Part shown: positions 4,793 through 21,819 of the stretch, one piece after another
How the letters are laid out: each line of letters begins with the position of its first letter
Numbering within the stretch: position 1 is the stretch's first letter
From: an uncultured Dyadobacter sp.
GTDB taxonomy: Bacteria > Bacteroidota > Bacteroidia > Cytophagales > Spirosomataceae
Reading direction: 5' to 3'
Assembly: GCF_946482605.1 (NCBI RefSeq)
Contig: NZ_CAMLSE010000059.1
Location: forward strand, 1-27,540
DNA length: 27,540 nucleotides
Translations under genes and position numbers: made by a program
The notes under the pieces: generated by a model
What the model saw: only the letters and a program-made list of their open reading frames with translations
What the model was told of the DNA's origin: nothing
Databases searched by the model: none

Positions 4793-5581
4793 ATGTCCCA
4801 GCCCTTATACGTAGTCAAGATCGGAGGTAATGTAATCGACAATCCCGAAGCATGTGCCCGTTTTCTGAAAGCCTTTGCGGAGCTCGATGCTCCCAAAATC
4901 CTCGTGCACGGCGGCGGAAAAGTAGCGACGCAAATAGCCGCGAAATTGCAGATTGAAACGCAGATGGTTGACGGCCGCCGCATTACCGACCAGCCGATGC
5001 TGGATGTGGTGACCATGGTGTACGGAGGGCTGGTGAACAAAAACCTCGTAGCGCAATTGCAAGCCGCCGACTGCAACGCCATCGGCCTTACCGGTGCTGA
5101 CGGCGGTATCATACGTTCCGTGAAGCGTCCTGTGAAAACGATCGATTACGGATTCGTGGGCGACATCGAAGCGGTAAACGGCGAGCAAATCAACGCTATC
5201 CTGTCCAGCGGCCTCACGCCGATCATCGCCCCATTAACATACAGCGCCGAAGGCCTGCTGCTCAATACGAACGCCGACACGATGGCCTCCGCAACGGCGG
5301 TCGCGATGTCGGAAACATTTGAAGTGAACCTGATCTATTGTTTCGAGAAAAAAGGCGTGCTCTCGGACCCCGACGACGACGACGCGGTGATCAGCAAACT
5401 GGTACCCGCTACTTACGAAGAGTACAAAGCCACAGGCGCGATCAATAAAGGTATGATACCCAAACTTGACAATGCATTTGCTGCATTGAATGCAGGTGTG
5501 ACGCAAGTTACCATTTGCCATGCCGATGAGTTGGCGAATGCGGTTTCCGGAGGTGCGGGGACGGCGATTGTGATCGGGTAG
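4793..5581 (+). CDS. argB: Acetylglutamate kinase (possibly N-succinylglutamate kinase), arginine biosynthesis
   Basis: The protein phosphorylates the gamma-carboxylate of an N-acylated glutamate, the second step of arginine synthesis in the cytoplasm. Its 262 residues are normal for the family. Visible motifs are the N-terminal KIGGNVID (K9), the glycine loop VHGGGK (38-43), MVDGRRITD (58-66) for the acyl-amino-acid substrate, LNTNAD (157-162), and KGMIPKL (219-225) with two lysines near the nucleotide site. Known biochemistry in Bacteroides shows that some Bacteroidota use N-succinyl rather than N-acetyl intermediates; the sequence read by eye cannot decide this. No other arg gene is adjacent: argH lies 12 kb away on the opposite strand. 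The ATG at 4793 follows a TAnnTTTG promoter element, and a strong hairpin follows the stop codon. Confidence 0.93.
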   Translation: MSQPLYVVKIGGNVIDNPEACARFLKAFAELDAPKILVHGGGKVATQIAAKLQIETQMVDGRRITDQPMLDVVTMVYGGLVNKNLVAQLQAADCNAIGLTGADGGIIRSVKRPVKTIDYGFVGDIEAVNGEQINAILSSGLTPIIAPLTYSAEGLLLNTNADTMASATAVAMSETFEVNLIYCFEKKGVLSDPDDDDAVISKLVPATYEEYKATGAINKGMIPKLDNAFAALNAGVTQVTICHADELANAVSGGAGTAIVIG

Positions 5582-5610
5582 GTATCTTTTGAATGACAAT
5601 TAGTTAAGTG

Positions 5611-5657
5611 AAGGTCTGTAAATTTAGGAATCGCATTCCTAAGTTTACAGACTTTTG
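5611..5657 (+). terminator. Hairpin terminator after argB
   Basis: A long inverted repeat, GTCTGTAAATTTAGGAAT against ATTCCTAAGTTTACAGAC with a 3-base loop and one mismatch, spans 5614-5652. It is preceded by AAG and followed by TTTTG, which fits an intrinsic terminator. It separates argB from the monooxygenase operon. The roughly 110 bp after it are AT-rich and presumably hold the next promoter; the best -7 candidate, CAATTTTG at 5688-5695, has one mismatch to consensus. Confidence 0.75.
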
Positions 5658-5769: not shown

Positions 5770-7098
5770 ATGCTGTTTCGAAAAGGCCTAGTTCTGGTTT
5801 TTTTGCTGTTGTGTCATTGGTGTGCAGGCCAGGCTCCCGAGTTTTATAAGGATGTACAACCGATTATCCATGCCAATTGCGTTCCGTGCCATCGTGCGGG
5901 CGAGGCAGCTCCATTCCCCCTGGTAACGTTCGAGGATGTCGCCAAACGCTCCAAATTCATCAAACAAGTCGTCAGTTCGAGGTATATGCCGCCCTGGAAG
6001 GCCGACAACCATTACAATTCCTTTGCCAACGACCGCTCGCTGAGCGAAAAAGATATCAAAACGATTGTCGGATGGATAGACGGCGGCACCTCCAAAGGTA
6101 AAGCCAACGTCAAAGCCGAACAGGAGTTGCAGGCCCGCCTCGACGCCGGAACATCTTATAAACGCAAGCCGGACCTCAAACTGAGCATGAAAGAGGCGTT
6201 CACGCTGAAAGGCGATACCAAGGAACGCTTCGTCATGTTCAAGATTCCATTTGAGATGGCCCAGGAGGCTAATGTGGAGGCAATCGAGTTTACTTCCAAT
6301 AACAAGAAACTCATCCACCACGCCAATTTTGCGATCCATCCCGTGCCCGACGCGTCGATAGACCTGCATAACACGGTCGATTTCGTGGACCTGAGCGGGC
6401 CGGAGGGCGACAAGTATTATGAATGGGTCAAGTATAAAAAAGAAATGACCTATTATGGCGGCTGGATCCCGGGAACGACGGTCGAGGCCTATCCCGAAGA
6501 TATGGGTTGGGTAATGCCCAAACGGGGCGTGGTGTTGCTCACCGTGCATTTTGGCCCCAGTTCGGTAGACGCGCAAAGTATCGACGGCCTGAATGTCTTC
6601 TTCAAAAAAACGCCTATCAAACGCAGGGTAAAGGTGATAAGCCTCGGCTCGGGCGGTATCGGTGAAAAGGAGATTTCACCACCGCTCATGATCTTTGCCA
6701 ATGAGGTGAGTAGTTTTAAACTACGTATTGCAAACAACCAGCCCGATATTTCGCTCCTGTACGCGTGGCCGCATATGCATTACCTGGGCAAGGAGTTCAA
6801 GGCTTATGCGACGATGGCCTCGGGCGATACGGTAGGCCTTGTACACGTGCCTGCGTGGGATTTCCGCTGGCAGGAAATTTATAAATATAAAAAACCGGTA
6901 TTGCTGCCCAAAGGCGCGGTGGTGACGGTAGAAGCGACTTACGATAATACAGCGAGTAATCCTGCGAACCCGCACAATCCGCCGCAGCTGGTGTTGTCGA
7001 CGGGCAATATGCGGAGCGATCAGGAAATGATGACGCTTATCCTGATGTATGTGGACAGGCTACCCGGCGACGAGGAGCTTGTTTTCAAGTGGAATTGA
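5770..7098 (+). CDS. Exported CxxCH / copper type II monooxygenase (PHM/DBM-like)
   Basis: I prefer the ATG at 5770 because MLFRKGLVLVFLLLCHWCAGQ then makes a clean signal peptide; an in-frame ATG at 5743 would add nine residues. Numbering here follows the longer form (451 aa). A short cytochrome-c-like segment has CVPCH at 46-50, flanked by the usual F/YKDVQPI and PPWKAD context. The rest resembles the two-domain catalytic core of peptidylglycine/dopamine monooxygenases. HH192-193 and H269 fit the CuH site; H344 and H346 (WPHMHYLGKEF) with the EMM at 428-430 fit the CuM site. All expected copper ligands therefore seem present. The family hydroxylates a C-H bond using O2; the substrate is unknown. 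It is first in an operon, 27 bp before the FG-GAP/UnbV gene. The CxxCH may supply electrons in place of ascorbate, which is inference. Confidence 0.87.
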   Translation: MLFRKGLVLVFLLLCHWCAGQAPEFYKDVQPIIHANCVPCHRAGEAAPFPLVTFEDVAKRSKFIKQVVSSRYMPPWKADNHYNSFANDRSLSEKDIKTIVGWIDGGTSKGKANVKAEQELQARLDAGTSYKRKPDLKLSMKEAFTLKGDTKERFVMFKIPFEMAQEANVEAIEFTSNNKKLIHHANFAIHPVPDASIDLHNTVDFVDLSGPEGDKYYEWVKYKKEMTYYGGWIPGTTVEAYPEDMGWVMPKRGVVLLTVHFGPSSVDAQSIDGLNVFFKKTPIKRRVKVISLGSGGIGEKEISPPLMIFANEVSSFKLRIANNQPDISLLYAWPHMHYLGKEFKAYATMASGDTVGLVHVPAWDFRWQEIYKYKKPVLLPKGAVVTVEATYDNTASNPANPHNPPQLVLSTGNMRSDQEMMTLILMYVDRLPGDEELVFKWN

Positions 7099-7125
7099 TT
7101 TTTATTGGTTCATAAACGGAATTGC

Positions 7126-10100
7126 ATGGGTAAACTCTACTATCTGTTGTTTTTGCTGCCATTTCCTGTTTTCTCCCAGCCTGTTTTCAGGAAATTACCT
7201 CCCAAAGAAACCGGGGTGAATTTCATAAACCGGATCGAAGAGAACGATTCGCTGCACATTTTCCGGTATGAATATCTCTACAACGGAAACGGGATCGGTG
7301 TGGGCGATTTCAATGGAGACGGCAAGCCCGATCTCTTTATTTCCGGAAATACGGTTCCAAACAAGCTGTTCCTCAATCGTTCGCCGGAAGGGGGCATCGC
7401 ATTTGAAGATGTGACCCGCAAAGCGAAGCTCGAAGGCAATGGTAAATGGGCGACAGGCGTGAGCGTGGCCGATGTAAACGGCGACGGTCTGCCGGATATC
7501 TACGTATGTCATTCCGGGTTTTACAGGAAGCTGTCGGACAAGAATAACGAGTTGTTTATCAATCAGGGCGTAAAGGGCGGTGTGCCGGTTTTCAAGGAAG
7601 TAGCCGTGGAAGCAGGTTTGAATGCGATCGGCTCGCAATCCACGCAGGCAGCCTTTTTTGACTATGACAAAGACGGCGACCTGGATATGTTTTTGCTCAA
7701 TCACTCCAACCACACGGTCAATCCGTTCCTGAATACCAGGGAAATGCGTGCCACGCCGAACCCCTATTTTGGCAACCGGCTATTCGAGAATGTAGGCGGG
7801 AAGGGCAAGCTCAAATTCCAGGACGTAACCCAGAAGGCGGGAATTATCAACAATGCTTTGAACTTCGGATTGAGTGTGGTCGTGGCGGATATGAACCAGG
7901 ACGGCTGGCCCGACCTTTACACGACGAGCGACTATACCGAGGTTGATTGTTATTATGTCAACAATCGGAACGGCACATTCACAGAGTCGTTGCGCAAGTC
8001 GTTTACCCACGTTTCGAGGTTCTCAATGGGTGCCGACGTGGCCGATTTCAACAACGACGGCCTGCCCGACGTGCTAACGCTCGATATGCTGCCGGAGGAC
8101 AACCACCGCCAGAAGTTGCTCAAAGGCGCTGATATGTACGATCAATACCATTTGTTGCTCGACAGCGGTTATTACCACCAGAATATGCGTAATATGCTGC
8201 ACCTGAACCGCGGAATCGACCAGGCGGGCAATGTGCGGTTCAGTGAAATAGGCCAGCTTGCGGGCGTCAGCAATACCGATTGGAGCTGGGCAGGTTTAAT
8301 GGCCGACCTTGACAATGACGGCTGGAAGGATCTGCTTATCACAAACGGCTATCTGAGGGATTTTACCAATATGGATTTCCTGAAATACACCGTGGCCGAC
8401 GAGCAGATGAAGGAAGCGGCAAAGGGCAACCTGAATTTCAAAACCTACGATCTGGTGCAGAAGATGCCCTCCAACAAGCTCAGGAACTACTTATTCAGGA
8501 ACACCGGCGTCGCTGGAAGCTTTGGTTTCGAGGATGTTTCGGAAAAATGGGGGATGAATGAGCTGGCGGTTTCGAATGCAGCTGCCTACGCGGATTTTGA
8601 CGGCGACGGCGACCTGGATATGGTCATTTCGCACATCAACGACCCGGTTTCGATTTATCAGAACCAAACTAACAAAAAAGGCCTGACGCTGCGGCTGCTC
8701 GGTTTGAATGCCAATTCGCAGGCATTCGGCGCGAAAGCGCGTGTGTATGCGGGAGGCGTTACGCAATACGCAGAGCTCTATCCGGTTCGGGGTTACCAAT
8801 CGACCGTCACTTCCGACCTGCATTTCGGGTTGGGTATTGCCGGAAAGGCCGATTCCGTGCGGATTGATTGGCCTTCGGGTAAAACCAGTTTCCTGGCCAA
8901 TCAGGCAGCCGGGCTCGTGGTACTGAAAGAAGCCGAAGGCGCTGACCCCAAGCCGAATGGTCCGGTGGCTGTTTCCTGGTTCCAAAATGTGGCTGCACAG
9001 GCCGCCGGGATCGATTTTGTGCATAAGGAAAATGATTTTGTGGATTTCAAAGTGGAGGTGCTGCTGCCTTACCAGCTTTCGAGACTGGGACCTGCACTGG
9101 CGAAAGCGGACGTAAATGGCGACGGCCTCGACGATGTGTTCCTGGGCGGCGCGTCGCATCAGTTTGGCGTGCTTTATATTCAAAAACAAGATGGTACTTT
9201 CGAAGGCGCTGCCGCCCAGCCCTGGCGGCAGAATGTGGTTTGTGAGGAAGTGAATGCATTATTCTTCGATGCCGACCGCGATGGCGACCTAGATTTATAC
9301 GTGGTGAGCGGTGGTAATGAGTTTGACGAAAATGCCCCGGAATACCGCGATCACCTGTATCTGAATGATGGAAAAGGGGCTTTTCACGAAGAAGTACTGG
9401 CATTGCCGTCCATGCGCAACCCCAAGCAATGCATTGCCGCGGCGGATGTGGATGGCGACGGCGACTTGGACCTTTTCATAGGCGGCCGCGCGGTGCCGGG
9501 TTCGTTTCCAATGGCGGCGAGAAGTTATTTATTAAGGAATGACAGTCAGGGTACCAGCGTGAAATTCACGGATATTACAGCTGGCGTGGCTGCTTTGCTG
9601 AACCCGGGAATGGTTACCGCCGCAGTTTTTGCGGATTTAAATGCAGATAAAAAGCCCGATCTGCTACTCGCAGGTGACTGGATGCCCGTCATGGCTTTTA
9701 AAAATACCGGTACCACATTTGAAAATGAGCCGGTTGATGCATTGAAGGATTCCGACGGAATGTGGGCTGCTATGGAAGCCACGGACCTCGATGGCGACGG
9801 CGACCTCGATTTCATACTCGGTAACGCAGGTTTAAACAATCAATATAAACCCACGCCCGATAAACCGGTGGCGATCTACTACGACGATTTCGATAAAAAT
9901 GGCGTGATCGATCCCGTCTGCACCTATTATATCGGAGAAAAAAGCTACCCGATGTTCTCCCGCGACGAAATGCTCGACCAGATGACGGCCCTGAAAAGGA
10001 AATATACCAACTACGCCGGCTATGCCGATGCGACGGTGGAAGATGTTTTTGGAAAAGATGCCGTAGAAAAAAGTAAAAAAGTGTATTGCAAAGAGCTGAG

Positions 10101-10455
10101 GAGCATTGTGCTGGAAAATCTGGGGAACTTCGGATTTAAAAGGCATTCGCTTCCGGAAGCCGTTCAATTTTCCCGGACGAGCAGCATTATCGCTCAGGAT
10201 TTGAATGTGGATGGCAAAGCAGATCTCGTGGTCGCGGGCAACTTTTCCGCTTACCGCGTGCAGCTCGGGCCTTGCGACGCTTCGGTAGGGACGGTGTTGA
10301 AGCAGGTAGGACCTTTCCGTTTCGAGGCACTTTCGCCTACGGAGACTGGCTTATGGGCAGGCGGCGATATTCGGGGTGGGGTTTTGTTAAATAAAAGGCG
10401 TATATTGTTTACCGTTAATAATGACGAGCCCGTCTTGTTGGAATGGAAAAAGTGA
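7126..10455 (+). CDS. Large exported FG-GAP/VCBS repeat protein with central UnbV (ASPIC) domain
   Basis: The reading frame opens at a TTG at 7105, but the ATG at 7126 gives a proper signal peptide (MGKLYYLLFLLPFPVFSQ), so I start there; the protein is 1,109 residues. It holds about 14 calcium-binding-type repeats of the form D-x-N/D-x-D-G-x-x-D, seven before the centre (e.g. VGDFNGDGKPDLFISG, VADVNGDGLPDIYV, FFDYDKDGDLDMFL) and seven after (e.g. KADVNGDGLDDVFLGG, AADVDGDGDLDLFIGG). Between them, around 525-595, lies an UnbV/ASPIC-like segment with NANSQAFGAKARVYAGG and VRIDWPSGKTSFL. This suggests two beta-propellers joined by the UnbV domain. The protein is exported, with no enzymatic motif visible. 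It may be a surface scaffold or binding protein. Its stop codon overlaps the haloperoxidase start by 13 bp, so the two are translationally linked. Confidence 0.9.
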   Translation: MGKLYYLLFLLPFPVFSQPVFRKLPPKETGVNFINRIEENDSLHIFRYEYLYNGNGIGVGDFNGDGKPDLFISGNTVPNKLFLNRSPEGGIAFEDVTRKAKLEGNGKWATGVSVADVNGDGLPDIYVCHSGFYRKLSDKNNELFINQGVKGGVPVFKEVAVEAGLNAIGSQSTQAAFFDYDKDGDLDMFLLNHSNHTVNPFLNTREMRATPNPYFGNRLFENVGGKGKLKFQDVTQKAGIINNALNFGLSVVVADMNQDGWPDLYTTSDYTEVDCYYVNNRNGTFTESLRKSFTHVSRFSMGADVADFNNDGLPDVLTLDMLPEDNHRQKLLKGADMYDQYHLLLDSGYYHQNMRNMLHLNRGIDQAGNVRFSEIGQLAGVSNTDWSWAGLMADLDNDGWKDLLITNGYLRDFTNMDFLKYTVADEQMKEAAKGNLNFKTYDLVQKMPSNKLRNYLFRNTGVAGSFGFEDVSEKWGMNELAVSNAAAYADFDGDGDLDMVISHINDPVSIYQNQTNKKGLTLRLLGLNANSQAFGAKARVYAGGVTQYAELYPVRGYQSTVTSDLHFGLGIAGKADSVRIDWPSGKTSFLANQAAGLVVLKEAEGADPKPNGPVAVSWFQNVAAQAAGIDFVHKENDFVDFKVEVLLPYQLSRLGPALAKADVNGDGLDDVFLGGASHQFGVLYIQKQDGTFEGAAAQPWRQNVVCEEVNALFFDADRDGDLDLYVVSGGNEFDENAPEYRDHLYLNDGKGAFHEEVLALPSMRNPKQCIAAADVDGDGDLDLFIGGRAVPGSFPMAARSYLLRNDSQGTSVKFTDITAGVAALLNPGMVTAAVFADLNADKKPDLLLAGDWMPVMAFKNTGTTFENEPVDALKDSDGMWAAMEATDLDGDGDLDFILGNAGLNNQYKPTPDKPVAIYYDDFDKNGVIDPVCTYYIGEKSYPMFSRDEMLDQMTALKRKYTNYAGYADATVEDVFGKDAVEKSKKVYCKELRSIVLENLGNFGFKRHSLPEAVQFSRTSSIIAQDLNVDGKADLVVAGNFSAYRVQLGPCDASVGTVLKQVGPFRFEALSPTETGLWAGGDIRGGVLLNKRRILFTVNNDEPVLLEWKK

Positions 10456-11795
10456 TCCGGAATAGGGCCTTCAGATGCTTCGCGTATGCATTATGCATGC
10501 TCGCGGGGGAATCGCATGCGCAGCCGCGCACGGCGTTGCTGCACCGCGCCGAGCAGAACCTCACGCGGGTGATCGTTCATGATATATTTTCTCCACCTGT
10601 GGCAAGCCGCATTTATTTGTATGCCAATGCAGCTGCTTACGAAACTTTGGTACTCGGCCATAAGGGATATAATAGCCTCTACGGCCAGGCCAACGGCTTC
10701 CCCCGGATAGAAGCGCCCCGCGAGAAAAGTTTGACTGCATCGGGCCTGCCCGCGGGTGATATTAACTACGAACTGGCTGCATTGTACGCGTTTTTCAGAA
10801 CGGGCGGACGGCTTGTTTTTTCAGAGCCGATGCTGAAAGACAGTGCCGAGCATATCCTTGCCACTTGCGGCGAGCACGACGAGGTCGTTTACCAGAATTC
10901 CCTGCGCCTGGGCGAAATGGTTAGCGACAGCATTCTGGCCTGGTCGGCGCGCGACAACTACGCCGTCACCCGGAAAAAGCGCCGGTATGCATATAGTAAG
11001 GAAAAAGGTAAATGGACACCGACACCCCCGGGGTATATCGACGCCGTGGAGCCTTATTGGAGCCAGATCCGGCCCGTTTCGCTGGATTCCGCGGCGCAAT
11101 TCAAGCCCATTCCGCCGCCGGCATTCAGCACCGATCCTGCGAGCGCATTTATGAAGGAAGTGAAGGAAGTTTACGATAGCACGCGGGACCTTGGCAAGGA
11201 AAAAATCCTCATCGCTAGCTTCTGGGACTGTAATCCTTTTTATCTCAATACACAGGGCCACCTGAACTTCGCTACGAAGAAGCTTTCGCCCGGAGGCCAC
11301 TGGATATCGATCGCCGGACAAGCCACGGAGAGCGTCGGTAAAAGCTGGATCGAATCGTCGGCGGTTTACCTGCGTACATCCATTGCATTGTTCGATGGCT
11401 TCATCAGCTGCTGGGACGAAAAGTACCGTAGCCAGTTTATCCGGCCGGAAACGGTGATCAATGCTTACATGGATGAGAAATGGCGGCCATTGCTCCAGAC
11501 ACCGCCATTTCCGGAGTATACCAGCGGCCACAGCGTCATATCCACAGCGGCCGCGGAGGTGCTCGAAGCGGAGCTTGGGAAAGGATTTGCATTTGACGAC
11601 TATACCGAAACGCCGTATGGCTTACCGGTAAGGCATTTTAGTTCGTTTGCAGCGGCGGCGGAAGAGGCGGCCATCAGCAGGCTTTACGGAGGCATACACT
11701 ATCGGGCCGCCATTGTGAACGGGCAAAAGCAAGGCAGAGGCATTGGATTACAGGTAATTCAGAAAATACGGCTAAAAGAAACTATCGGCAAATAG
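10443..11795 (+). CDS. Exported vanadium-dependent haloperoxidase (PAP2 superfamily)
   Basis: The 450-residue protein has an N-terminal export signal (about 1-27, ending SHAQ) and the complete vanadate/phosphate-binding signature of the acid phosphatase/haloperoxidase superfamily. K327-YRSQFI-R334-P makes the first motif, SGH at 361-363 in EYTSGHSVISTAAA the second, and R413-LYGGIH419-Y the third. The spacing and an alpha-helical N-terminal half fit bacterial vanadium haloperoxidases rather than lipid phosphatases. Such enzymes use hydrogen peroxide to oxidise halide to hypohalous species; halide preference cannot be read here, and phosphatase activity is a possible alternative. The ATG overlaps the last 13 bp of the FG-GAP gene, giving a translationally coupled operon. 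SusC follows in the same direction after about 200 bp. Confidence 0.92.
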   Translation: MEKVIRNRAFRCFAYALCMLAGESHAQPRTALLHRAEQNLTRVIVHDIFSPPVASRIYLYANAAAYETLVLGHKGYNSLYGQANGFPRIEAPREKSLTASGLPAGDINYELAALYAFFRTGGRLVFSEPMLKDSAEHILATCGEHDEVVYQNSLRLGEMVSDSILAWSARDNYAVTRKKRRYAYSKEKGKWTPTPPGYIDAVEPYWSQIRPVSLDSAAQFKPIPPPAFSTDPASAFMKEVKEVYDSTRDLGKEKILIASFWDCNPFYLNTQGHLNFATKKLSPGGHWISIAGQATESVGKSWIESSAVYLRTSIALFDGFISCWDEKYRSQFIRPETVINAYMDEKWRPLLQTPPFPEYTSGHSVISTAAAEVLEAELGKGFAFDDYTETPYGLPVRHFSSFAAAAEEAAISRLYGGIHYRAAIVNGQKQGRGIGLQVIQKIRLKETIGK

Positions 11796-11842
11796 TCTAT
11801 CACAATTGTATGTTAATTATTAATATTTTTTAATAAATGTTA

Positions 11843-11872
11843 TATTTTTGTTAATAAAAATATTTATTTTTG
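11843..11872 (+). promoter_or_regulatory. Probable promoter region of susC
   Basis: Two TATTTTTG octamers (11843-11850 and 11865-11872) match the TAnnTTTG -7 consensus within a very AT-rich stretch, in contrast to the surrounding coding DNA. Using the second gives a leader of about 115 nt before the susC ATG, containing a small hairpin TCAGCC-TC-GGCTGA at 11906-11919. No canonical -33 TTTG sits at the ideal distance. Confidence 0.5.
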
Positions 11873-11993
11873 ACATTACAATGCTTTTGATGTGCAAAAT
11901 GGGAGTCAGCCTCGGCTGATTGCCGGTCTTCGGATCAGAGTATGTAGTCAAGTTAACTTAAACCACCTAAAATTTCAATTTACCAAGTTTACC

Positions 11994-14900
11994 ATGAGAC
12001 AAAAGTGTACTACTTTAACACGTCTGGTAACATTGCTCCTCCTCCTCACTGGAAGTACCTGGAGTATGGCCCAAGACAGAAAGACCGTCAGCGGGACGGT
12101 GCTTGACAAGGATCAGAATCCTTTGCCCGGCGTTTCCTACCTTATTAAGGGAGGCAGCACAGGTGGCGCGACAGATGCCAACGGAAAGTTCAGCGTGGCT
12201 GTGCCTTCCAGTTCGGCAGTGCTTGTATTTTCATCGATTGGATTTGTTACAAAAGAAGTACCGGTGGGTAATGCCACCCAATTGACCGTCAACCTGGACG
12301 AGGACAATAAAACGCTTAATGAAGTAGTCATCACAGGTTTCGGTATGTCGACCGAGGCCAGAAAGCTTGCTTTTTCGGTTCAGTCCGTTCAGGGACAGGA
12401 TATTACCCGCACTGCAAACGCCAACATGGTCAATGCATTGCAGGGTAAAGTAGCCGGTGTAATGATCAACCAGGGAACAGGTGGTCCGATGTCTTCGTCG
12501 CGTATCCGTATCCGCGGTAATGCATCGCTAAGCCCTAACACCCAGCCGCTTTTCGTGGTGGATGGTGTTTTGATCCGCCCCGGAACATCCGGTGCTGACT
12601 CATGGGGTGCTGCGCAGGATTTCGGTAACATCATGAAAAACATCAACCCGGATAACATCGAGTCGATGACCGTGTTGAAAGGTTCGGCTGCGAGCTCACT
12701 GTACGGTTCGGAAGCTTTGAATGGTGTAGTGGTTGTTCAAACTAAAAAAGGACGTGTTGATAAAGGCTTGGGAGTTACTTACACCCATACTTCGACTTTC
12801 GAGAATGCCTATAAATTCCTCGATCTTCAGAATGAATTCGGTGCAGGGTTGAGCCCTACATTTGCAAATGGTGCCGACGGCGTACCCGAAGTTGACCGTC
12901 CTAACTTCCCGTTCTCTTATGGTCCTAAATTTGAAGGCCAGCAAGTTCGTGACCTGGATGGCCGTATGGTGGAATGGAAAGCCAATGATCCGCTTAAATT
13001 CTTCCAGACTGGTAAGTACATCAACCACAACGTGGCCGTAGAAGGTGGTAACGACCGCAGCTCTTTCCGCGCATCTTTCTCGTCTTTGAAAAACACCAGC
13101 ATCATGGTGGCAGGAACCGAGCTGAAAAGAAATAACTTCAACGTTCGCGGAACGCAGAAAATCGGTAAAGTCATTAACCTGGACGTGAGCGCGGATTACA
13201 CCGACAACGACATGGTGAACCCGATCCGTCAGGGTGGTAACTACAACCCGGTATTCCGCTTTGTTTACAACCGTCCACGAAGCCTGGATATCGATTACTG
13301 GTCTAAAAACTACATCGATCCGATTGCAGGCGGACGTCGCCGCGGTACTGCCGACCCGTACAACATTACCGAGTTTATGTTCCAGACTTTCGAATACAAG
13401 CAATTCAGAAATGAAAAAGTATTCCGCGGGAACATTGACCTCACCGGAAAGCTCACCGATTGGCTAAGCTTCCTGGTACGCGGTAACGTTCAGAACGAGT
13501 TGTATACAGGTGGAAATAAAAACAGAGGTGATAACGTGAACTACTCCGGCGGAGAGTACCGTGAATATTCTGAAAATAAGAGCCAGACCCGTTTCCAAGG
13601 TCTCTTGACTGCCAACAAGCAGCTGAGCACCGACTTCAATCTGAGCTTCACCGTGGGTGGAGAAACCAACCGGTTGGTCGGCGGACGTAAATTCGATATG
13701 CGTACAGACGGTGGTCTTCGTGTGCCGGATGTATACTCTTTGGCAAACAGCATCAACATCCTGAAAGTGGAAAGCAATGCGCTGACACCTTCGAAAAGAA
13801 TCGATGCATTGTACGCTTATGGTGACCTGACTTTCAAGGACGCGTTAACGTTGAGCGCGAGCTATCGTACCGACTGGTCTTCTACATTGACCTATGCTAA
13901 TGGAAACGGAGACTACATTTATTCTTATCCATCCGTAGGTTTGGCATGGATCGCGACAGAATCTTTGAAAGACCTTCCTTCCTGGTTGTCATTCGGTAAG
14001 CTGAGAGCCAGCCTTGGTTACACAGGTGGTGATACAGAGGCATGGTCTACCAACCAAACTGGTGTATACGAGCCCAAAGGTACTTATACACAGGCTGACG
14101 GAAGCGTAGTGAACTGGTCCGGTTTCCGCGATAACACGTTGCCAAACTATGCATTGAGAAACCGTCTGGCCCGCGAAGTTGAATTTGGTGCGGACATTCG
14201 TTTCTTCAACAACCGTTTGGGAATCGATGCGACTGTTTACAACAAGATCACTAAAAACGAGATTTTGAGCCTGAACACCACTGCTGAGTCAGGGGTAAGC
14301 AGCCGGATAGTGAATGCAGGTAGGATTCAAAACAAAGGGGTGGAAATCCTTTTGACAGCAACTCCTATCAAGAGAAGTGATTTCGAATGGAATACCAGCA
14401 TCAACTTCTCACGTAACCGTAACAAGGTGCTCGAACTCGTTGAAGGAACAAATACGTATGATCTGGCCCTCGGTTTTGGCGCTGACGTAAAATCTGTTGC
14501 CCGTGTTGGTAAGGATTACGGAACGGTGATCACGCAATACGGTTTTGCAACCTATAAATCCGCTGATGCCAATAACCCGGCAAACGGACAGAAAGTAATC
14601 GGTAGCATTTCAGGTGAAGGCGGTATCGGATATGTACGCAACGGTTCTTACGGCGACAAGGCGGATAAGGAACTGGGAACGGTGATGGAGAAATTCCTGG
14701 CAAGCAATGTCAACTCTTTCCGTTACAAAAACTTCACGGCAACCGTTCAGGCCGACGCTAAAATCGGTGGTATCATGTCGTCCGCAACGCACCAGTATGG
14801 TTCTTCGACAGGTGCATTCGCATTCACATTGCCAGGTCGTAACCCTGAGCACGGTGGTGTAACCTATACAGATGCGGAAGGTGTTGTGAAAACCGACGGT

Positions 14901-15332
14901 ATCATCCCTCAGGGTGTATTGGCGGACGGATTCAAGGTGGTAGTGGATGGTCAGCCGAAAGACCTGGGTGGCATGAGCTACGCCGACGCGGTAACAGCGG
15001 GTTATGTGAAGCCAATTCCTGCTTACGCATACTACCTGAACCTGACCCAATGGTCGTCCGGTATCCGGGAATATTCGACTTTCGAAAACTCATGGGTTGC
15101 ATTGCGTGAAGTTTCGATCGGCTACAATGTGCCTTCGGCATGGTTGAGCAAGGCAAAGATCCAAAGCCTGCGTGTGAGCCTGGTTGGTCGTAACCTGGGT
15201 TACCTGTATAAAACTGCGAAGGATGGTATCAACCCGGAAGGTTTGTATAGCAACAAGGCCGGTGAGTTCATGGAGTACGGTGGTTTGCCATTCTCGCGTA
15301 ACCTTGGCGTATCAGTGAGCGTAGGATTGTAA
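11994..15332 (+). CDS. SusC/RagA-family TonB-linked outer membrane transporter
   Basis: The frame is open from a GTG at 11892, but the ATG at 11994 directly begins a signal peptide (MRQKCTTLTRLVTLLLLLTG, ending SMAQ), giving 1,112 residues. After it come a carboxypeptidase D regulatory-like domain (about 29-102, VSGTVLDKDQNPLPGVSYLI), the TonB-box-like EVVITGFG, and a plug domain with ALQGKVAGVMI, SSSRIRIRGNASLS, PLFVVDGVLI and AASSLYGSEALNGVVVVQTK. The rest is the 22-strand barrel. There is no STN domain before the regulatory domain, so it is not of the anti-sigma-signalling type. It imports a nutrient across the outer membrane, driven by TonB, with SusD as lid. The substrate is unknown and no glycoside hydrolase is adjacent. 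Its codons favour GGT, CGT and AAC, unlike its GGC-rich upstream neighbours, which suggests high expression. Confidence 0.95.
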   Translation: MRQKCTTLTRLVTLLLLLTGSTWSMAQDRKTVSGTVLDKDQNPLPGVSYLIKGGSTGGATDANGKFSVAVPSSSAVLVFSSIGFVTKEVPVGNATQLTVNLDEDNKTLNEVVITGFGMSTEARKLAFSVQSVQGQDITRTANANMVNALQGKVAGVMINQGTGGPMSSSRIRIRGNASLSPNTQPLFVVDGVLIRPGTSGADSWGAAQDFGNIMKNINPDNIESMTVLKGSAASSLYGSEALNGVVVVQTKKGRVDKGLGVTYTHTSTFENAYKFLDLQNEFGAGLSPTFANGADGVPEVDRPNFPFSYGPKFEGQQVRDLDGRMVEWKANDPLKFFQTGKYINHNVAVEGGNDRSSFRASFSSLKNTSIMVAGTELKRNNFNVRGTQKIGKVINLDVSADYTDNDMVNPIRQGGNYNPVFRFVYNRPRSLDIDYWSKNYIDPIAGGRRRGTADPYNITEFMFQTFEYKQFRNEKVFRGNIDLTGKLTDWLSFLVRGNVQNELYTGGNKNRGDNVNYSGGEYREYSENKSQTRFQGLLTANKQLSTDFNLSFTVGGETNRLVGGRKFDMRTDGGLRVPDVYSLANSINILKVESNALTPSKRIDALYAYGDLTFKDALTLSASYRTDWSSTLTYANGNGDYIYSYPSVGLAWIATESLKDLPSWLSFGKLRASLGYTGGDTEAWSTNQTGVYEPKGTYTQADGSVVNWSGFRDNTLPNYALRNRLAREVEFGADIRFFNNRLGIDATVYNKITKNEILSLNTTAESGVSSRIVNAGRIQNKGVEILLTATPIKRSDFEWNTSINFSRNRNKVLELVEGTNTYDLALGFGADVKSVARVGKDYGTVITQYGFATYKSADANNPANGQKVIGSISGEGGIGYVRNGSYGDKADKELGTVMEKFLASNVNSFRYKNFTATVQADAKIGGIMSSATHQYGSSTGAFAFTLPGRNPEHGGVTYTDAEGVVKTDGIIPQGVLADGFKVVVDGQPKDLGGMSYADAVTAGYVKPIPAYAYYLNLTQWSSGIREYSTFENSWVALREVSIGYNVPSAWLSKAKIQSLRVSLVGRNLGYLYKTAKDGINPEGLYSNKAGEFMEYGGLPFSRNLGVSVSVGL

Positions 15333-15368
15333 TCCGTTTACAGCCCATTTTTAATAACAGCATTTTTT

Positions 15369-17063
15369 ATGAAATCTATAAAGAGTAAACTCATATTAAT
15401 GGCCGCCGTAGGATTTCTGAGCTCCTGCGAGAAGCAAGCCTTTGTTGACGTCAACAAAAACCCGGACGCTCTTTCAGGGGTCCCACCTCAGAACCAGTTC
15501 TTGCAGGCAACAAATGGTATCCATAGCCAGGATTTTGAAGCATATTACGACTTCTATCGCCGTATCATGCCCTGGATGCAGTACAACACGCCGCAGACCG
15601 GGAACCAGGGTTCGTTTACTTTGAACTATGACAACTTCGCCAATCGTTACGGACGTCTTTACAACGGCGTGGGTGACAGATTGTACGATCTGGAACAGTT
15701 GGTAGGGAAACTGAGTGCCGACGAGCAGCCTCGTTACACGAATATGATCCAGCAGGCTCGTATCCTGAAAGCATATTACACTTTCTATGTTTCGGATATC
15801 TATGGAAGCGTACCTTATACAGAGGCTTTCCAGGGACGTTACGGCGGAACATTGCAGCCCAAGTATGATACACAGCAGGAATTGTTCGCAAAACTGGATG
15901 GAGAGATCAAAGCGGCTGTGGCGATTCTTAAACAAAACCCTGCGGTTCCGCAATATTCACTGGGCAACTATGACCAATATTTCAATGGTGACGCACAGAA
16001 ATGGATCAAGGCGGCTAATGCTTTAAGACTTCGTATGGCAATGCGTGTGCAGAAGGCTGATGCCACTGCGGGTAACGCGATCATCAATGAGGTACTTGCT
16101 TTGCCTGCCGCTGATCAGATGAGCAGCAACGCCGACGCCTGGGTGTTTATCGGTAACGCTACATTTACCGGTGATGCGGGTGGCGGTAACTGGAATACCG
16201 ACGGGTTGAGAGCTCCCAAGCCGATAGTGGATTTTATGTGGGACAAAAAAGACCCGCGTCTGGATGCCTTCTTTACACCTAACCAATACAGCCAGGCTAA
16301 TGTTGATCTGCTGATTGCGGATAAGAAGCTCCCTGCTGGTACAAAAGCGGGAAGGCGCTACGTCGGAAGCTTCACCAGCCCTGATGATGCACGTCAGACG
16401 ACCACGATTCAGAGATACTACACTCCGAAGCTGATCTCGTCCAACAATCAGACCGTCGACACATTGTCGTTCATTCAACCACGCCTGTTCAATGCAGGAA
16501 AGGCTGATGGAGCAGGAAATGCAGGAACGGGCAAGTCATACATCCCTGTGATCACTTATGCCGAATTCTGCTTTATGCGTGCGGAGCTTGCAACGAAGTC
16601 GATCGGTACCGGCACTGCAAAAGACTGGTACGAAGCTGGTGTGAAGAGCTCTTTGCAGTTTTACAACGAAGTAGGTCTGGGAGCGAAACTGACAGACTAT
16701 GTCGCCACCACCGATGCCGAAGTTGCAGCCTATCTGGCACAACCTGGGGTTGCATTCGAGGCTGCAAAAGCAATGGATCAGATCGCGAGTCAGAGCTACC
16801 TGAACTTCATGAGACAGCCTCAGGAAGGATGGGCCTTGTGGAAGCGCACAGGTTATCCTAACGAAAACTCTGTGGTGCCTTTGCCAAAAATGACTTACCT
16901 CAATGTTGCATTGGTTGTTCCACGTCGTGCGCCTATCACTTTGCCGTCGTCATCAGATCCTAACTTTGCAAACAAAAAGGCAGCTTACGATGCCATGGCT
17001 GCACAGCCGGGCTTCGGAGACCTCGCAAGTGCGCAAGGCCGTGTTTGGTGGGACAAGCAATAA
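15369..17063 (+). CDS. SusD/RagB-family outer membrane lipoprotein (SusD-like_2 type)
   Basis: The gene starts 36 bp after susC and encodes 564 residues. The N-terminus MKSIKSKLILMAAVGFLSSC is a lipoprotein signal with C20 as the lipidated residue. The TPR-like helical body shows typical segments: ARILKAYYTFYVSDIYGSVP, YFNGDAQKWIKAANALRLRM and FMRQPQEGWALWKRTGYPNE. These fit the SusD-like_2 branch rather than classical starch-binding SusD. It sits on the cell surface and closes over the SusC barrel, binding the ligand before import. The genes form a two-gene operon ended by a strong hairpin; substrate identity is not visible. Confidence 0.93.
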   Translation: MKSIKSKLILMAAVGFLSSCEKQAFVDVNKNPDALSGVPPQNQFLQATNGIHSQDFEAYYDFYRRIMPWMQYNTPQTGNQGSFTLNYDNFANRYGRLYNGVGDRLYDLEQLVGKLSADEQPRYTNMIQQARILKAYYTFYVSDIYGSVPYTEAFQGRYGGTLQPKYDTQQELFAKLDGEIKAAVAILKQNPAVPQYSLGNYDQYFNGDAQKWIKAANALRLRMAMRVQKADATAGNAIINEVLALPAADQMSSNADAWVFIGNATFTGDAGGGNWNTDGLRAPKPIVDFMWDKKDPRLDAFFTPNQYSQANVDLLIADKKLPAGTKAGRRYVGSFTSPDDARQTTTIQRYYTPKLISSNNQTVDTLSFIQPRLFNAGKADGAGNAGTGKSYIPVITYAEFCFMRAELATKSIGTGTAKDWYEAGVKSSLQFYNEVGLGAKLTDYVATTDAEVAAYLAQPGVAFEAAKAMDQIASQSYLNFMRQPQEGWALWKRTGYPNENSVVPLPKMTYLNVALVVPRRAPITLPSSSDPNFANKKAAYDAMAAQPGFGDLASAQGRVWWDKQ

Positions 17064-17152: not shown

Positions 17153-17686
17153 TCACTGATTAATCAAACACCCAATTGCCTCCGTTCTGCTTTTGACAAC
17201 CATTTCTCCATTTAATACGGCGTCAATAGCATTTCTCAGGTATAGCTCGGTAGCCTTCGCTCTGTTTTTCCCCAGTGCATAATACCAGTTATCGATCGCT
17301 CCCCGGTACAGTATTTCCCCATTTGCATTGATGAGTATCGCTTCGGGCATGGTGATGGCCTGGTAGCGCTTCACTTTACGTAATTCCGGGTCCTGATAGC
17401 CGGGAATGGTGGTTTGGTATTTGAGCAAAAATCGACGGATGTCTTCCCTTTTAACCGTCGGGACTGGGAAGACTGCTTCAAACGCAACGCCTTTTTTGGA
17501 ATAATCCGTGTGAATGCTTTTGATCTCGCGCATGTAGGCATTCGAAACCGGGCACTCGGGATCGAGGAAGAAGATGACTTTGAGGTTACCCGGTCCGGCA
17601 TGGGCGGGACGGTGCGTGCTGGTAGCCGAAATAAGGCTAAGAGTAATGCAGCACAACGTCCAGACGATGGCGGACCGGGTTTTCAT
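17153..17686 (-). CDS. Exported single-Cys redoxin / thioredoxin-fold protein
   Basis: The 177-residue protein has a signal sequence (about 1-30, ending PAHA) and a short thioredoxin fold. The active-site region reads FFLDPECPVSNAYMREI: C45 is followed by P-V-S rather than the usual C-x-x-C, so a second redox cysteine is missing there. The other cysteine of the mature protein is C173 in the C-terminal EAIGCLIN. The cis-proline region (AITMPEAILINANGEILYRG) is intact. The DxxCPVSN site together with RGAIDN and the final GC-x-I resembles redoxin domains that I recall next to or fused with PHM-like copper monooxygenases in Planctomycetes and Acidobacteria. That suggests a link to the enzyme at 5770-7098, but this is inference from memory. 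It starts 5 bp after argH and is probably co-transcribed with it. Confidence 0.8.
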   Translation of the reverse strand: MKTRSAIVWTLCCITLSLISATSTHRPAHAGPGNLKVIFFLDPECPVSNAYMREIKSIHTDYSKKGVAFEAVFPVPTVKREDIRRFLLKYQTTIPGYQDPELRKVKRYQAITMPEAILINANGEILYRGAIDNWYYALGKNRAKATELYLRNAIDAVLNGEMVVKSRTEAIGCLINQ

Positions 17687-17691
17687 GGTAT

Positions 17692-19026
17692 TTATTTTAA
17701 TAATGCTTCCAAAGCGGTGGATATCCTCTCATACCCGAATGCCGCTATTTCCAGCTCCATTCGTGCACGAATAGCGTCCGTCTGCAAATTCCCGATACTT
17801 CCCTCGTGGCTATGTTTCAATGCCCGCGGCGCAACATAGCTGCCATCACCGATTTCGGCCCCAACCTGCTTGTAAGCATCACGGAACGGTACACCCGCGA
17901 TCACGAGCTCATTCACACGTTCGACGCTGAAAAGCAGGTCGTATTTCGGATCGTCGAGCAGGTTTTGCTTCACTTTCAAATGTTCGAGCATAAACGCGGC
18001 GATGTCGAGGCAATCGAGGATCTCATCGAATGCAGGCATCAGGATTTCTTTCAGCAGCTGCATATCGCGGTGGTAGCCGGATGGCAGGTTGCTGAGAACC
18101 AGCGTTACCTCCATGGGAAGGGCTTTCATGCGGTTGGTCTTGGCACGGAGCAGCTCGGCAACGTCCGGGTTCTTTTTGTGCGGCATAATGCTGCTGCCCG
18201 TCGTAAGGTCGTCCGGCAAGACGATAAACCCAAAATTCTGACTGTTGTAAAGGCAAACGTCCATCGCCAGCCGGGAAACCGTTGCGGCCAGCGAAGCGAT
18301 CGCGCTCAATGCAGCCTGTTCGGTCCGGCCGCGGCTCATCTGTGCGTACACCACATTGTGATGCATGCCTTCGAAGCCCAGCAGTTCGGTGGTAAGCTGG
18401 CGATCGAGCGGGAACGACGATCCGTAGCCAGCTCCGGAGCCTAGCGGGTTACGATTGGCGAGGCGGTAGGCTGCATTCAGCTGGATCACGTCGTCGATCA
18501 GTCCCTCTGCATAGGCCCCAAACCATAGCCCGAAGGAAGAGGGCATGGCGATCTGTAAATGCGTGTAGCCTGGTAACAGATCATTTTTATGTTCTTCCGA
18601 TTTGCGGGCAAGCACATCGAAAAGCTTCCCGGTAGCCTGAACGACTTCAAACAACCGCGCACGAGTGTAAAGCTTCATATCCACGAGCACCTGATCGTTG
18701 CGCGAACGTCCGCTATGGATCTTTTTGCCTGTATCGCCCAGCTTGCGGGTCAGCAGCAACTCTACCTGCGAATGCACGTCCTCGATGCCGTCTTCGATTA
18801 CGAATTCGCCGGCCTGAGTTTGCTGGTAAATGGCTTTCAGTTCGGTTTTAAGGGCTGAAAGGTCATCGGCTGTAAGCAAGCCGATGGTTTCCAGCATGGT
18901 GGCATGCGCTATATTTCCGAGCACGTCGAATTCGGCCAGGTGCAGGTCCATTTCGCGGTCCCGCCCGACTGTGAAGCGCTCAATTTTTTCAGAAGTGACA
19001 GTATTTTCCTTTTGCCAGAGTTTCAA
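17692..19026 (-). CDS. argH: Argininosuccinate lyase
   Basis: The protein catalyses the last step of arginine synthesis, splitting argininosuccinate into arginine and fumarate in the cytoplasm. Its 444 residues are close to the usual length. Fumarase/aspartase superfamily motifs are complete: EDVHSQVE (82-89), SGRSRNDQV (105-113), GYTHLQIAMP (153-162, with catalytic T155-H156) and the signature GSSIMPHKKNPDVAELLRAK (277-296) with the catalytic serine loop. The ATG at 19024-19026 fits the N-terminal MKLWQK start of relatives and lies about 40 bp after a TAnnTTTG element. The exported redoxin follows 5 bp downstream. The pathway partner argB is 12 kb away, so the arginine genes are scattered. 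Confidence 0.95.
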   Translation of the reverse strand: MKLWQKENTVTSEKIERFTVGRDREMDLHLAEFDVLGNIAHATMLETIGLLTADDLSALKTELKAIYQQTQAGEFVIEDGIEDVHSQVELLLTRKLGDTGKKIHSGRSRNDQVLVDMKLYTRARLFEVVQATGKLFDVLARKSEEHKNDLLPGYTHLQIAMPSSFGLWFGAYAEGLIDDVIQLNAAYRLANRNPLGSGAGYGSSFPLDRQLTTELLGFEGMHHNVVYAQMSRGRTEQAALSAIASLAATVSRLAMDVCLYNSQNFGFIVLPDDLTTGSSIMPHKKNPDVAELLRAKTNRMKALPMEVTLVLSNLPSGYHRDMQLLKEILMPAFDEILDCLDIAAFMLEHLKVKQNLLDDPKYDLLFSVERVNELVIAGVPFRDAYKQVGAEIGDGSYVAPRALKHSHEGSIGNLQTDAIRARMELEIAAFGYERISTALEALLK

Positions 19027-21722: not shown

Positions 21723-21819
21723 TTTGGAGCGCTCAGCATTGGTTCGTTTTTAGGCATGGGAATTGTAGTATAATTTCTAATTGAAAGTAGAAATAATGTA
21801 TCTATTTAAATATGTAAAT

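What the first reader, a model, noticed from the sequence alone, without database searches (positions are those of the whole stretch)
5770..17063. Copper monooxygenase, giant UnbV protein and vanadium haloperoxidase in one operon, followed by SusCD
Three exported proteins are packed with a 27-bp gap and a 13-bp overlap: a CxxCH/PHM-like monooxygenase, an about 1,100-residue FG-GAP/UnbV double propeller and a complete vanadium haloperoxidase. A SusC/SusD pair follows in the same direction. Two different O2/H2O2-using oxidases with a big extracellular scaffold and an outer-membrane importer suggest an oxidative processing and uptake locus, with the UnbV protein as a possible organiser. I recall VCBS repeat proteins and haloperoxidases being neighbours in Cytophagales, but I know of no described function for the set. 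Gene order is seen; joint function is inference.
Basis: partly seen in the sequence, partly recalled or inferred. Interest (0 to 1): 0.72.

Follow-up and report, generated by a model that had tools for sequence, protein, structure and literature searches.

The report
SusCD uptake locus with oxidase partners
A conserved set of exported bacterial genes joins an outer-membrane importer, a large double-propeller protein and a vanadium peroxidase (here with a copper oxygenase too); the set is real and often inherited together, but what it oxidises is not known.

Summary
Window 5770-17063 (Dyadobacter-like) encodes a cytochrome c/copper monooxygenase of PHM fold, a 1,109-residue UnbV (CRTAC1-like) protein, a vanadium haloperoxidase with all seven vanadate-site residues, then SusC and SusD. 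The neighbourhood survey was run. UnbV lies directly upstream of the peroxidase in 65 of 69 related loci; of 296 Bacteroidota genomes, 61 of 64 with the peroxidase carry UnbV, against 80 of 232 without. UnbV and peroxidase paralogues co-diverge (0 of 5,000 shuffles). UnbV genes with no peroxidase close by still sit with SusC and SusD (44 of 53 loci) and UnbV co-diverges with SusC (0 of 3,000). A 98.8% match to the solved Zobellia peroxidase also lies behind tandem UnbV genes. Relatives add fucosidase, hexosaminidase and mannosidase genes, pointing to glycan or glycopeptide use. Extracellular location, scaffold role and substrate remain inferred. I found no description of the unit in the library searched. 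New variant of a known kind.

The parts
5610..5656 (+). terminator-like 20-bp stem after argB, separating argB from the oxidase genes
   Evidence: pattern scan; 17 sites against a shuffled mean of 15.7, but this stem of 20 pairs is far longer than the next, 10
5770..7098 (+). exported cytochrome c domain (C37xxC40H41, Met73) fused to a PHM/DBH-type copper monooxygenase core
7126..10455 (+). exported UnbV/ASPIC double FG-GAP propeller protein, 1109 aa; N-terminal half CRTAC1-like; 13 DxDxDG-type motifs
10443..11795 (+). exported vanadium-dependent haloperoxidase, zgVIPO1 (4cit) family, full vanadate site
11796..11993 (+). AT-rich gap before SusC with two TAnnTTTG (-7-like) elements at 11843-11850 and 11865-11872; possible separate promoter for SusCD
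   Evidence: no -33 element found at the usual spacing in the window
11994..15332 (+). SusC/RagA TonB-dependent outer-membrane transporter
   Evidence: TIGR04056, 540 bits; nearest solved: BT_2264
15369..17063 (+). SusD-like_2 outer-membrane lipoprotein
17153..17686 (-). redoxin (thioredoxin-like) gene; related genes lie between SusD and the PHM gene on the same strand in 17 loci

Best explanation
It is an outer-membrane uptake locus that works like a polysaccharide-utilisation (SusCD) locus whose accessory enzymes are oxidases. Shown: SusC-SusD-UnbV is a conserved, co-inherited unit in Bacteroidota; the vanadium peroxidase is UnbV's co-inherited partner with tightly packed or overlapping genes; a cytochrome c/PHM-type copper monooxygenase, often with a redoxin, is added in one UnbV lineage that includes Dyadobacter. 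Inferred: the UnbV double propeller is a calcium-stabilised partner of SusCD that holds or feeds the peroxidase; H2O2 plus halide (peroxidase) and O2 plus electrons delivered through the cytochrome and perhaps the redoxin (copper enzyme) modify a glycan- or glycopeptide-type ligand outside the cell or just after it passes SusCD, so that it can be bound, imported or cleaved. In Dyadobacter and near relatives the cassette sits between argB and argH with SusCD on the downstream side.
For: UnbV directly upstream of VHPO in 65 of 69 loci of the VHPO scan (L069 is cut at the contig start, L060-L062 lack it); 63 of 71 UnbV-VHPO rows overlap or lie within 30 bp, measured to the first ATG of the VHPO frame (three rows are one broken locus, L068, and one is the window). 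Phylum draw: VHPO in 64 and UnbV in 141 of 296 genomes, 61 shared, Fisher p 8e-20; of 79 core VHPO loci 46 have UnbV directly upstream on the same strand and 60 have one within the fetched 8-kb flanks. Paralogue-matched co-divergence UnbV-VHPO r 0.82 against 0.27, 0 of 5,000 within-genome shuffles; UnbV-SusC r 0.63 against 0.02, 0 of 3,000. UnbV with no core VHPO within 6 kb: SusC and SusD both within 14 kb in 44 of 53 loci, SusD nearest recognised upstream gene in 39 of 53 (a few, such as L218, L223, L226, are outer members of tandem UnbV arrays that end in a VHPO). SusD of PHM-bearing loci scores 690-932 bits against the window's profile whether SusCD is up- or downstream, against 373-529 in PHM-lacking loci, so the downstream pair in Dyadobacter is the same pair. 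Gene behind VHPO in 33 relatives: GH29 9, ROK kinase 4, redoxin domain 3, GH20 2, GH92, GH47, GH35, sulfatase 1 each; 29 genes of the next two positions: GH29 6, GH3 5, GH92 3, GH20 2, GH18 2.
Against: No glycosidase and no regulator among the 17 window proteins scanned (two had no family). Nearest solved SusC is BT_2264 (283 bits against 150 or less for others), known as a peptide importer (recalled), which does not point to glycans. 19 of 79 core VHPO loci have no UnbV within the fetched flanks, so the peroxidase can act without it. The distant VHPO subfamily is rarely linked (3 of 21). In the paralogue test the best UnbV match and best VHPO match named the same partner in only 164 of 270 comparisons. 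In the phylum sample the genes behind VHPO are mixed, with few glycosidases. No lipobox by eye in the window's three proteins, so attachment to SusCD on the surface is not indicated. No physical interaction was tested.
Confidence: 0.45

Rival explanations
1. Stress or defence role: the peroxidase consumes H2O2 and makes hypohalous acid (and the copper enzyme and redoxin handle oxidants) to protect the cell, or to attack rivals, while it feeds through SusCD. The genes are co-regulated, not one pathway.
For: A redoxin gene occurs in 28 loci including the window; one Zobellia iodoperoxidase (vIPO3) was upregulated on the alga A. nodosum and the authors discuss it with algal halogenated defence compounds (PMC9296495, passages).
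Against: Paralogue-by-paralogue co-divergence of UnbV with VHPO and with SusC argues for specific partnership, which general defence does not need.
Confidence: 0.22
2. The PAP2-fold enzyme works without vanadium as a phosphatase on phosphorylated glycans, the UnbV protein serving as a calcium-dependent glycan binder.
For: Pfam PAP2 match; K-x6-RP, SGH and SR-x5-H are shared by acid phosphatases and haloperoxidases (motif recalled, positions read); mannosidase and hexosaminidase neighbours.
Against: A 98.8% match to the solved Zobellia enzyme, reported iodide-specific in vitro (Fournier 2014, recalled; paper not held; its title seen in a reference list), is itself UnbV-linked. The Asp that follows the last His in phosphatases is Ala here (H419-Y-R-A; motif recalled). 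It does not explain the copper monooxygenase.
Confidence: 0.18
3. Peptide modification and uptake: SusCD imports peptides and the PHM-like enzyme hydroxylates them in the periplasm; sugars are incidental.
For: Nearest solved SusC is BT_2264, known as a peptide importer (recalled); PHM acts on peptides in animals (recalled); esterase/S9-like neighbours in 3 of 33.
Against: Glycosidase neighbours in many genera; the SusD is nearest to a chain named SusD, with glucan-binding chains close behind; most UnbV-VHPO loci of the phylum sample have no PHM.
Confidence: 0.12
4. Chance or hitch-hiking neighbourhood without joint function.
For: SusC is abundant: all 32 candidates scored in each of 12 genomes matched, so some SusC neighbours are expected; SusC occurs in 4 of 21 distant-VHPO loci, two of these UnbV-linked.
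Against: 29 of 35 against 0.12 expected; shuffles 0 of 5,000 and 0 of 3,000.
Confidence: 0.03

Closest known systems
zgVIPO1, vanadium iodoperoxidase of Zobellia galactanivorans (PDB 4cit, 4usz)
   Different: WDCNPY of 4cit is WDCNPF here; halide preference of the Dyadobacter enzyme untested; no copper monooxygenase hit in L108
CRTAC1, cartilage acidic protein 1 (PDB 9etn)
   Same: FG-GAP propeller plus UnbV/ASPIC domain; top fold match, E 1e-27, TM 0.75 over the target
   Different: The bacterial protein adds a second propeller half and lies with SusCD; no EGF-like domain among its Pfam hits
Peptidylglycine alpha-hydroxylating monooxygenase and dopamine beta-hydroxylase
   Different: About 16% identity; c-type cytochrome domain in front; the only Cys after the signal peptide are those of CxxCH, so the PHM disulfides (recalled) are absent
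SusCD polysaccharide-utilisation loci and their outer-membrane utilisomes (recalled)
   Same: SusC-SusD pair with dedicated accessory proteins; glycosidases in relatives
   Different: Accessory proteins here are oxidases and a UnbV propeller; no glycosidase among the window proteins scanned
CRTAC1-family FG-GAP gene beside hydrazine-synthase-subunit homologues (PMC12758564, passages read)
   Same: An FG-GAP/CRTAC1 gene recurring beside a redox enzyme
   Different: Different enzyme and organisms; no SusCD in the passages

Membership tests
Vanadium haloperoxidase | Seven vanadate-site residues K, R, S, G, H, R, H | tested here: met
   K327 R334 S361 G362 H363 R413 H419 invariant in 21 sequences and aligned with 4cit; residue roles recalled
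Vanadium haloperoxidase | Halide oxidation with H2O2 and bound vanadate | not testable with these tools
   needs purified enzyme
PHM/DBH copper monooxygenase | Two-domain PHM fold | tested here: met
PHM/DBH copper monooxygenase | His-His, His, His-x-His, Met copper ligands | tested here: met
   H183 H184 H260 H335 H337 M420 (or M414) invariant in 29 sequences; assigned by order and spacing, not by superposition; pattern recalled
PHM/DBH copper monooxygenase | Hydroxylase activity with an external reductant | not testable with these tools
   the cytochrome domain suggests haem-delivered electrons (inference)
CRTAC1 (ASPIC/UnbV) | FG-GAP propeller followed by UnbV domain | tested here: met
Polysaccharide-utilisation locus | SusC-SusD pair | tested here: met
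Polysaccharide-utilisation locus | Glycosidase or lyase gene in the locus | tested here: not met
   none among the window's 17 scanned proteins; present in many relatives
Polysaccharide-utilisation locus | Ligand-responsive regulator in the locus | tested here: not met
   no sensor, HTCS or sigma/anti-sigma domain among the 17 scanned proteins

The most novel reading that the evidence does not exclude
An oxidative counterpart of the glycan utilisome: SusCD complexes of aerobic Bacteroidota carry a CRTAC1-like double propeller (UnbV) as an adaptor that docks interchangeable oxidases (vanadium peroxidase, cytochrome-fed copper monooxygenase) and oxidises glycoprotein-type ligands at the importer. 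UnbV/CRTAC1 would then be a general adaptor for exported redox enzymes.
Probability: 0.2. Interest if true: 0.82.

Novelty: new variant of a known kind. Interest (0 to 1): 0.62.

Why it matters
Vanadium peroxidases are well studied in the test tube, yet their job in bacteria is unclear (recalled). This gives one large bacterial branch, including a near-copy of the solved Zobellia enzyme, a conserved partner (UnbV) and a likely site of action (a SusCD importer). It also gives the UnbV/CRTAC1 fold, which in humans is made in cartilage and lung (PMC10477339, passages), a testable bacterial role. Two Pedobacter genomes with a single UnbV match and a single VHPO match, side by side (G006 and G007), offer clean knock-out hosts.

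Tried and rejected
Fusion search: I looked for single proteins that fuse redoxin with cytochrome c-PHM (a layout I recall from other phyla) by searching a joined query; all 120 listed hits of 2,752 covered 68-72% of the query and were 426-469 aa long, so only the PHM part; the fusion is recalled, not shown. Plasmid records: no relative of the PHM-like protein. Own-genome search: no genome is held.

Promoters: sigma-70-type matches in the region (17) were near the shuffled mean 13.9 and were discarded. A TAnnTTTG element occurs before SusC in 13 of 17 Dyadobacter-type loci including the window, but TTTG at the -33 spacing in none and TTG only in L014, so a SusCD promoter is only possible.

Lipobox counting with a loose pattern (86 of 196 UnbV, 59 of 179 VHPO) over-counts (some hits are clearly not lipoproteins), so it was not used to place the proteins.

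Papers: search listings were 35 papers, 15 listed; UnbV with haloperoxidase: 0; any two of vanadium-dependent haloperoxidase, VCBS, SusC: 72, 15 listed, none on this by title; 'ASPIC and UnbV': 2; 12, 10 listed; FG-GAP with SusD: 2, one checked by passages, unrelated; 'CRTAC1 family protein': 1; vanadium, haloperoxidase, polysaccharide utilization: 2; PMC12188728 seen as listing only. Passages were read of PMC9296495, PMC12758564, PMC10477339, PMC11871015 and PMC2668756; no whole paper. Most subscription papers are not in that library.

Neighbour scans: one search listed 165 downstream genes; I scanned 33 (L016-L063; L003, L052, L054, L068 left out), 41 from the phylum sample (L103, L104, L112, L117, L121, L135, L162 left out) and 29 of later positions in L016-L058. 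Two of the 33 were rpoB, so not all are functional neighbours. Control: 31 of 35 genes downstream of UnbV without VHPO gave no glycosidase family in more than one member (GH31 and GH32 once each), but 45 of 70 families there were not shown, so single hits may be hidden. Searches likewise show 25 of 31, 44 and 34 families. The relatives are not independent, so these counts are not tests.
Full report
WHAT IS THERE. The window is from a Dyadobacter-like genome: named best hits of the PHM-like protein and of the haloperoxidase are Dyadobacter at 86% and 91% identity, and unnamed ones reach 95% and 92%. Between argB (4793-5581) and argH (17692-19026, minus strand) lie five plus-strand genes: cytochrome c-PHM 5770-7098, UnbV 7126-10455, VHPO 10443-11795, SusC 11994-15332 and SusD 15369-17063. 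A long stem-loop closes argB. The first three are packed with a 27-bp gap and a 13-bp overlap as reported; a 198-bp AT-rich gap precedes SusC.

THE PROTEINS. The first protein has CxxCH with an invariant Met73 and a PHM core. The top rows for its model (mean pLDDT 84.6) are all PHM or dopamine beta-hydroxylase, and the ligand pattern HH, H, HxH, M is invariant in 29 sequences. The UnbV model is confident as a whole (mean pLDDT 90.6, pTM 0.91); murine CRTAC1 is its top fold match, and 13 DxDxDG-type motifs lie over both halves. The VHPO is 50% identical to 4cit. SusC is a full SusC/RagA protein; nearest solved chain BT_2264.

NEIGHBOURHOOD SURVEY, CLOSE RELATIVES. A scan of one genome per species with a VHPO alignment gave 69 loci (107 stretches matched; the two peptide patterns favour close relatives). 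With profile searches and clustering, UnbV is in 65 of 69, SusC and SusD each in 58, the PHM gene in 44 (cluster counts less the window). Several loci are cut by contig ends. The order is SusC-SusD-PHM-UnbV-VHPO in Pedobacter, Chitinophagaceae, Runella and some Spirosoma and relatives; PHM is missing in Larkinella, Flectobacillus, Fibrella and other Spirosoma loci; and SusCD is downstream in Dyadobacter, Telluribacter, Persicitalea and Rhabdobacter, where argB precedes the cassette in 17 loci and argH follows in 15, window included. Three Larkinella loci hold two UnbV-VHPO pairs in tandem. A redoxin gene sits between SusD and PHM in 17 loci of the Pedobacter and Chitinophagaceae type; in ten Dyadobacter loci and the window it lies on the other strand after SusD. 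Pairs are tight: 63 of 71 rows overlap or are within 30 bp.

NEIGHBOURHOOD SURVEY, WHOLE PHYLUM. Of 296 Bacteroidota genomes drawn evenly, 64 have the VHPO and 141 an UnbV domain; 61 have both (odds ratio 39, p 8e-20). I fetched 100 VHPO places: all listed with E up to 4.7e-41 except two already held; 29 weaker rows were not fetched. Of 79 core-family loci, 46 have UnbV directly upstream on the same strand, 14 more have one elsewhere in the fetched flanks, 19 have none; of 21 distant-family loci, 3 have it adjacent and 4 have any. In 12 genomes chosen because they carry the locus, 29 of 35 core VHPO have an upstream same-strand UnbV within 6 kb against 0.12 expected, and 0 of 19 distant ones have a UnbV that near.

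SUSC-SUSD-UNBV IS THE CORE. The other 56 UnbV genes in those 12 genomes (53 regions) have no core VHPO within 6 kb. SusC and SusD both lie within 14 kb in 44 of 53, one of them in 5 more; SusD is the nearest recognised gene upstream on the same strand in 39. A few of these are outer members of tandem UnbV arrays that do end in a VHPO (L218, L223, L226). SusC is common, but distant-VHPO loci show it in only 4 of 21, two of them UnbV-linked. The stronger test is paralogue matching with genomes held fixed: UnbV-SusC distance correlation 0.63 against a shuffled mean of 0.02 (57 pairs, 10 genomes, 0 of 3,000), and UnbV-VHPO 0.82 against 0.27 (27 pairs, 11 genomes, three of them close Larkinella; 0 of 5,000; best matches agreed in 164 of 270). 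On a 193-row UnbV tree the PHM link needs 2 changes and the VHPO link 16, of which starred branches force 12 (rows were sampled for and against VHPO), so the PHM was added about once and the peroxidase was gained or lost several times.

LINK TO A STUDIED ENZYME. The VHPO of L108 is 98.8% identical over 410 residues to 4cit. It lies directly behind UnbV genes in tandem, the nearest overlapping it as open frames.

WHAT IT MAY ACT ON. In 33 relatives with a gene close behind VHPO, GH29 fucosidase is commonest (9), then ROK kinases (4); GH20, GH92, GH47, GH35 and a sulfatase also occur, and GH29, GH3, GH92, GH20 and GH18 in the next positions. This mix resembles N-glycan breakdown (inference). Genes behind UnbV without VHPO show no repeated glycosidase (capped list). 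In the phylum sample the set is different and mixed: GyrI-like, GH65, MFS, sulfatase. The peptide-type SusC and the glycosidases together would fit a glycopeptide; that is a guess.

LOCATION. The PHM-like protein, UnbV and VHPO have ordinary signal peptides by eye, without lipobox, and no sorting-domain hit; SusD has a lipoprotein start (by eye).

NOVELTY. Each family is known. The SusC-SusD-UnbV(-VHPO) unit, its reach and the matched paralogues were not found described in the paper searches, which cover open-licence papers only. In print, one passage notes a CRTAC1-family gene flanked by genes for hydrazine-synthase-subunit homologues (PMC12758564), in line with UnbV proteins recurring beside redox enzymes.

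Noticed in passing
window 17153-17686 (-): The Dyadobacter redoxins seen have CPxS or CPxT where most Pedobacter/Chitinophagaceae relatives have CPxC (L046 is CPxS too); the second Cys seems lost in the Dyadobacter branch (printed in part).
   Followed up: partly
window 4793-5581 and 17692-19026: The cassette lies between argB and argH in Dyadobacter and relatives, so it was probably inserted or rebuilt there in their ancestor.
   Followed up: partly
L011:16750-18291, L012, L014, L020 (-): At the site where Dyadobacter carries the redoxin, Telluribacter, Persicitalea and Rhabdobacter carry a ~520-aa FG-GAP protein on the minus strand.
   Followed up: partly
L068:6429-11220: In Spirosoma telluris both UnbV and VHPO are split over several frames, so the pair looks decayed together (or the sequence is faulty).
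   Followed up: no
L102, L107, L113 and seven other loci: A GH65-family gene lies near VHPO, in some between UnbV and VHPO, sometimes with an MFS transporter or a GyrI-like protein.
   Followed up: partly
L060-L062: Three Lunatimonas VHPO loci show no UnbV or SusCD hit within 10 kb; ROK-type genes lie near the peroxidase instead.
   Followed up: no
window 26102-27505 (-): Protein with a type IX secretion C-terminal sorting domain and no other Pfam match.
   Followed up: no
window 21781-23535 (+): Glucose/sorbosone dehydrogenase family protein followed by a MacB/FtsX-type permease; not part of the cassette.
   Followed up: no
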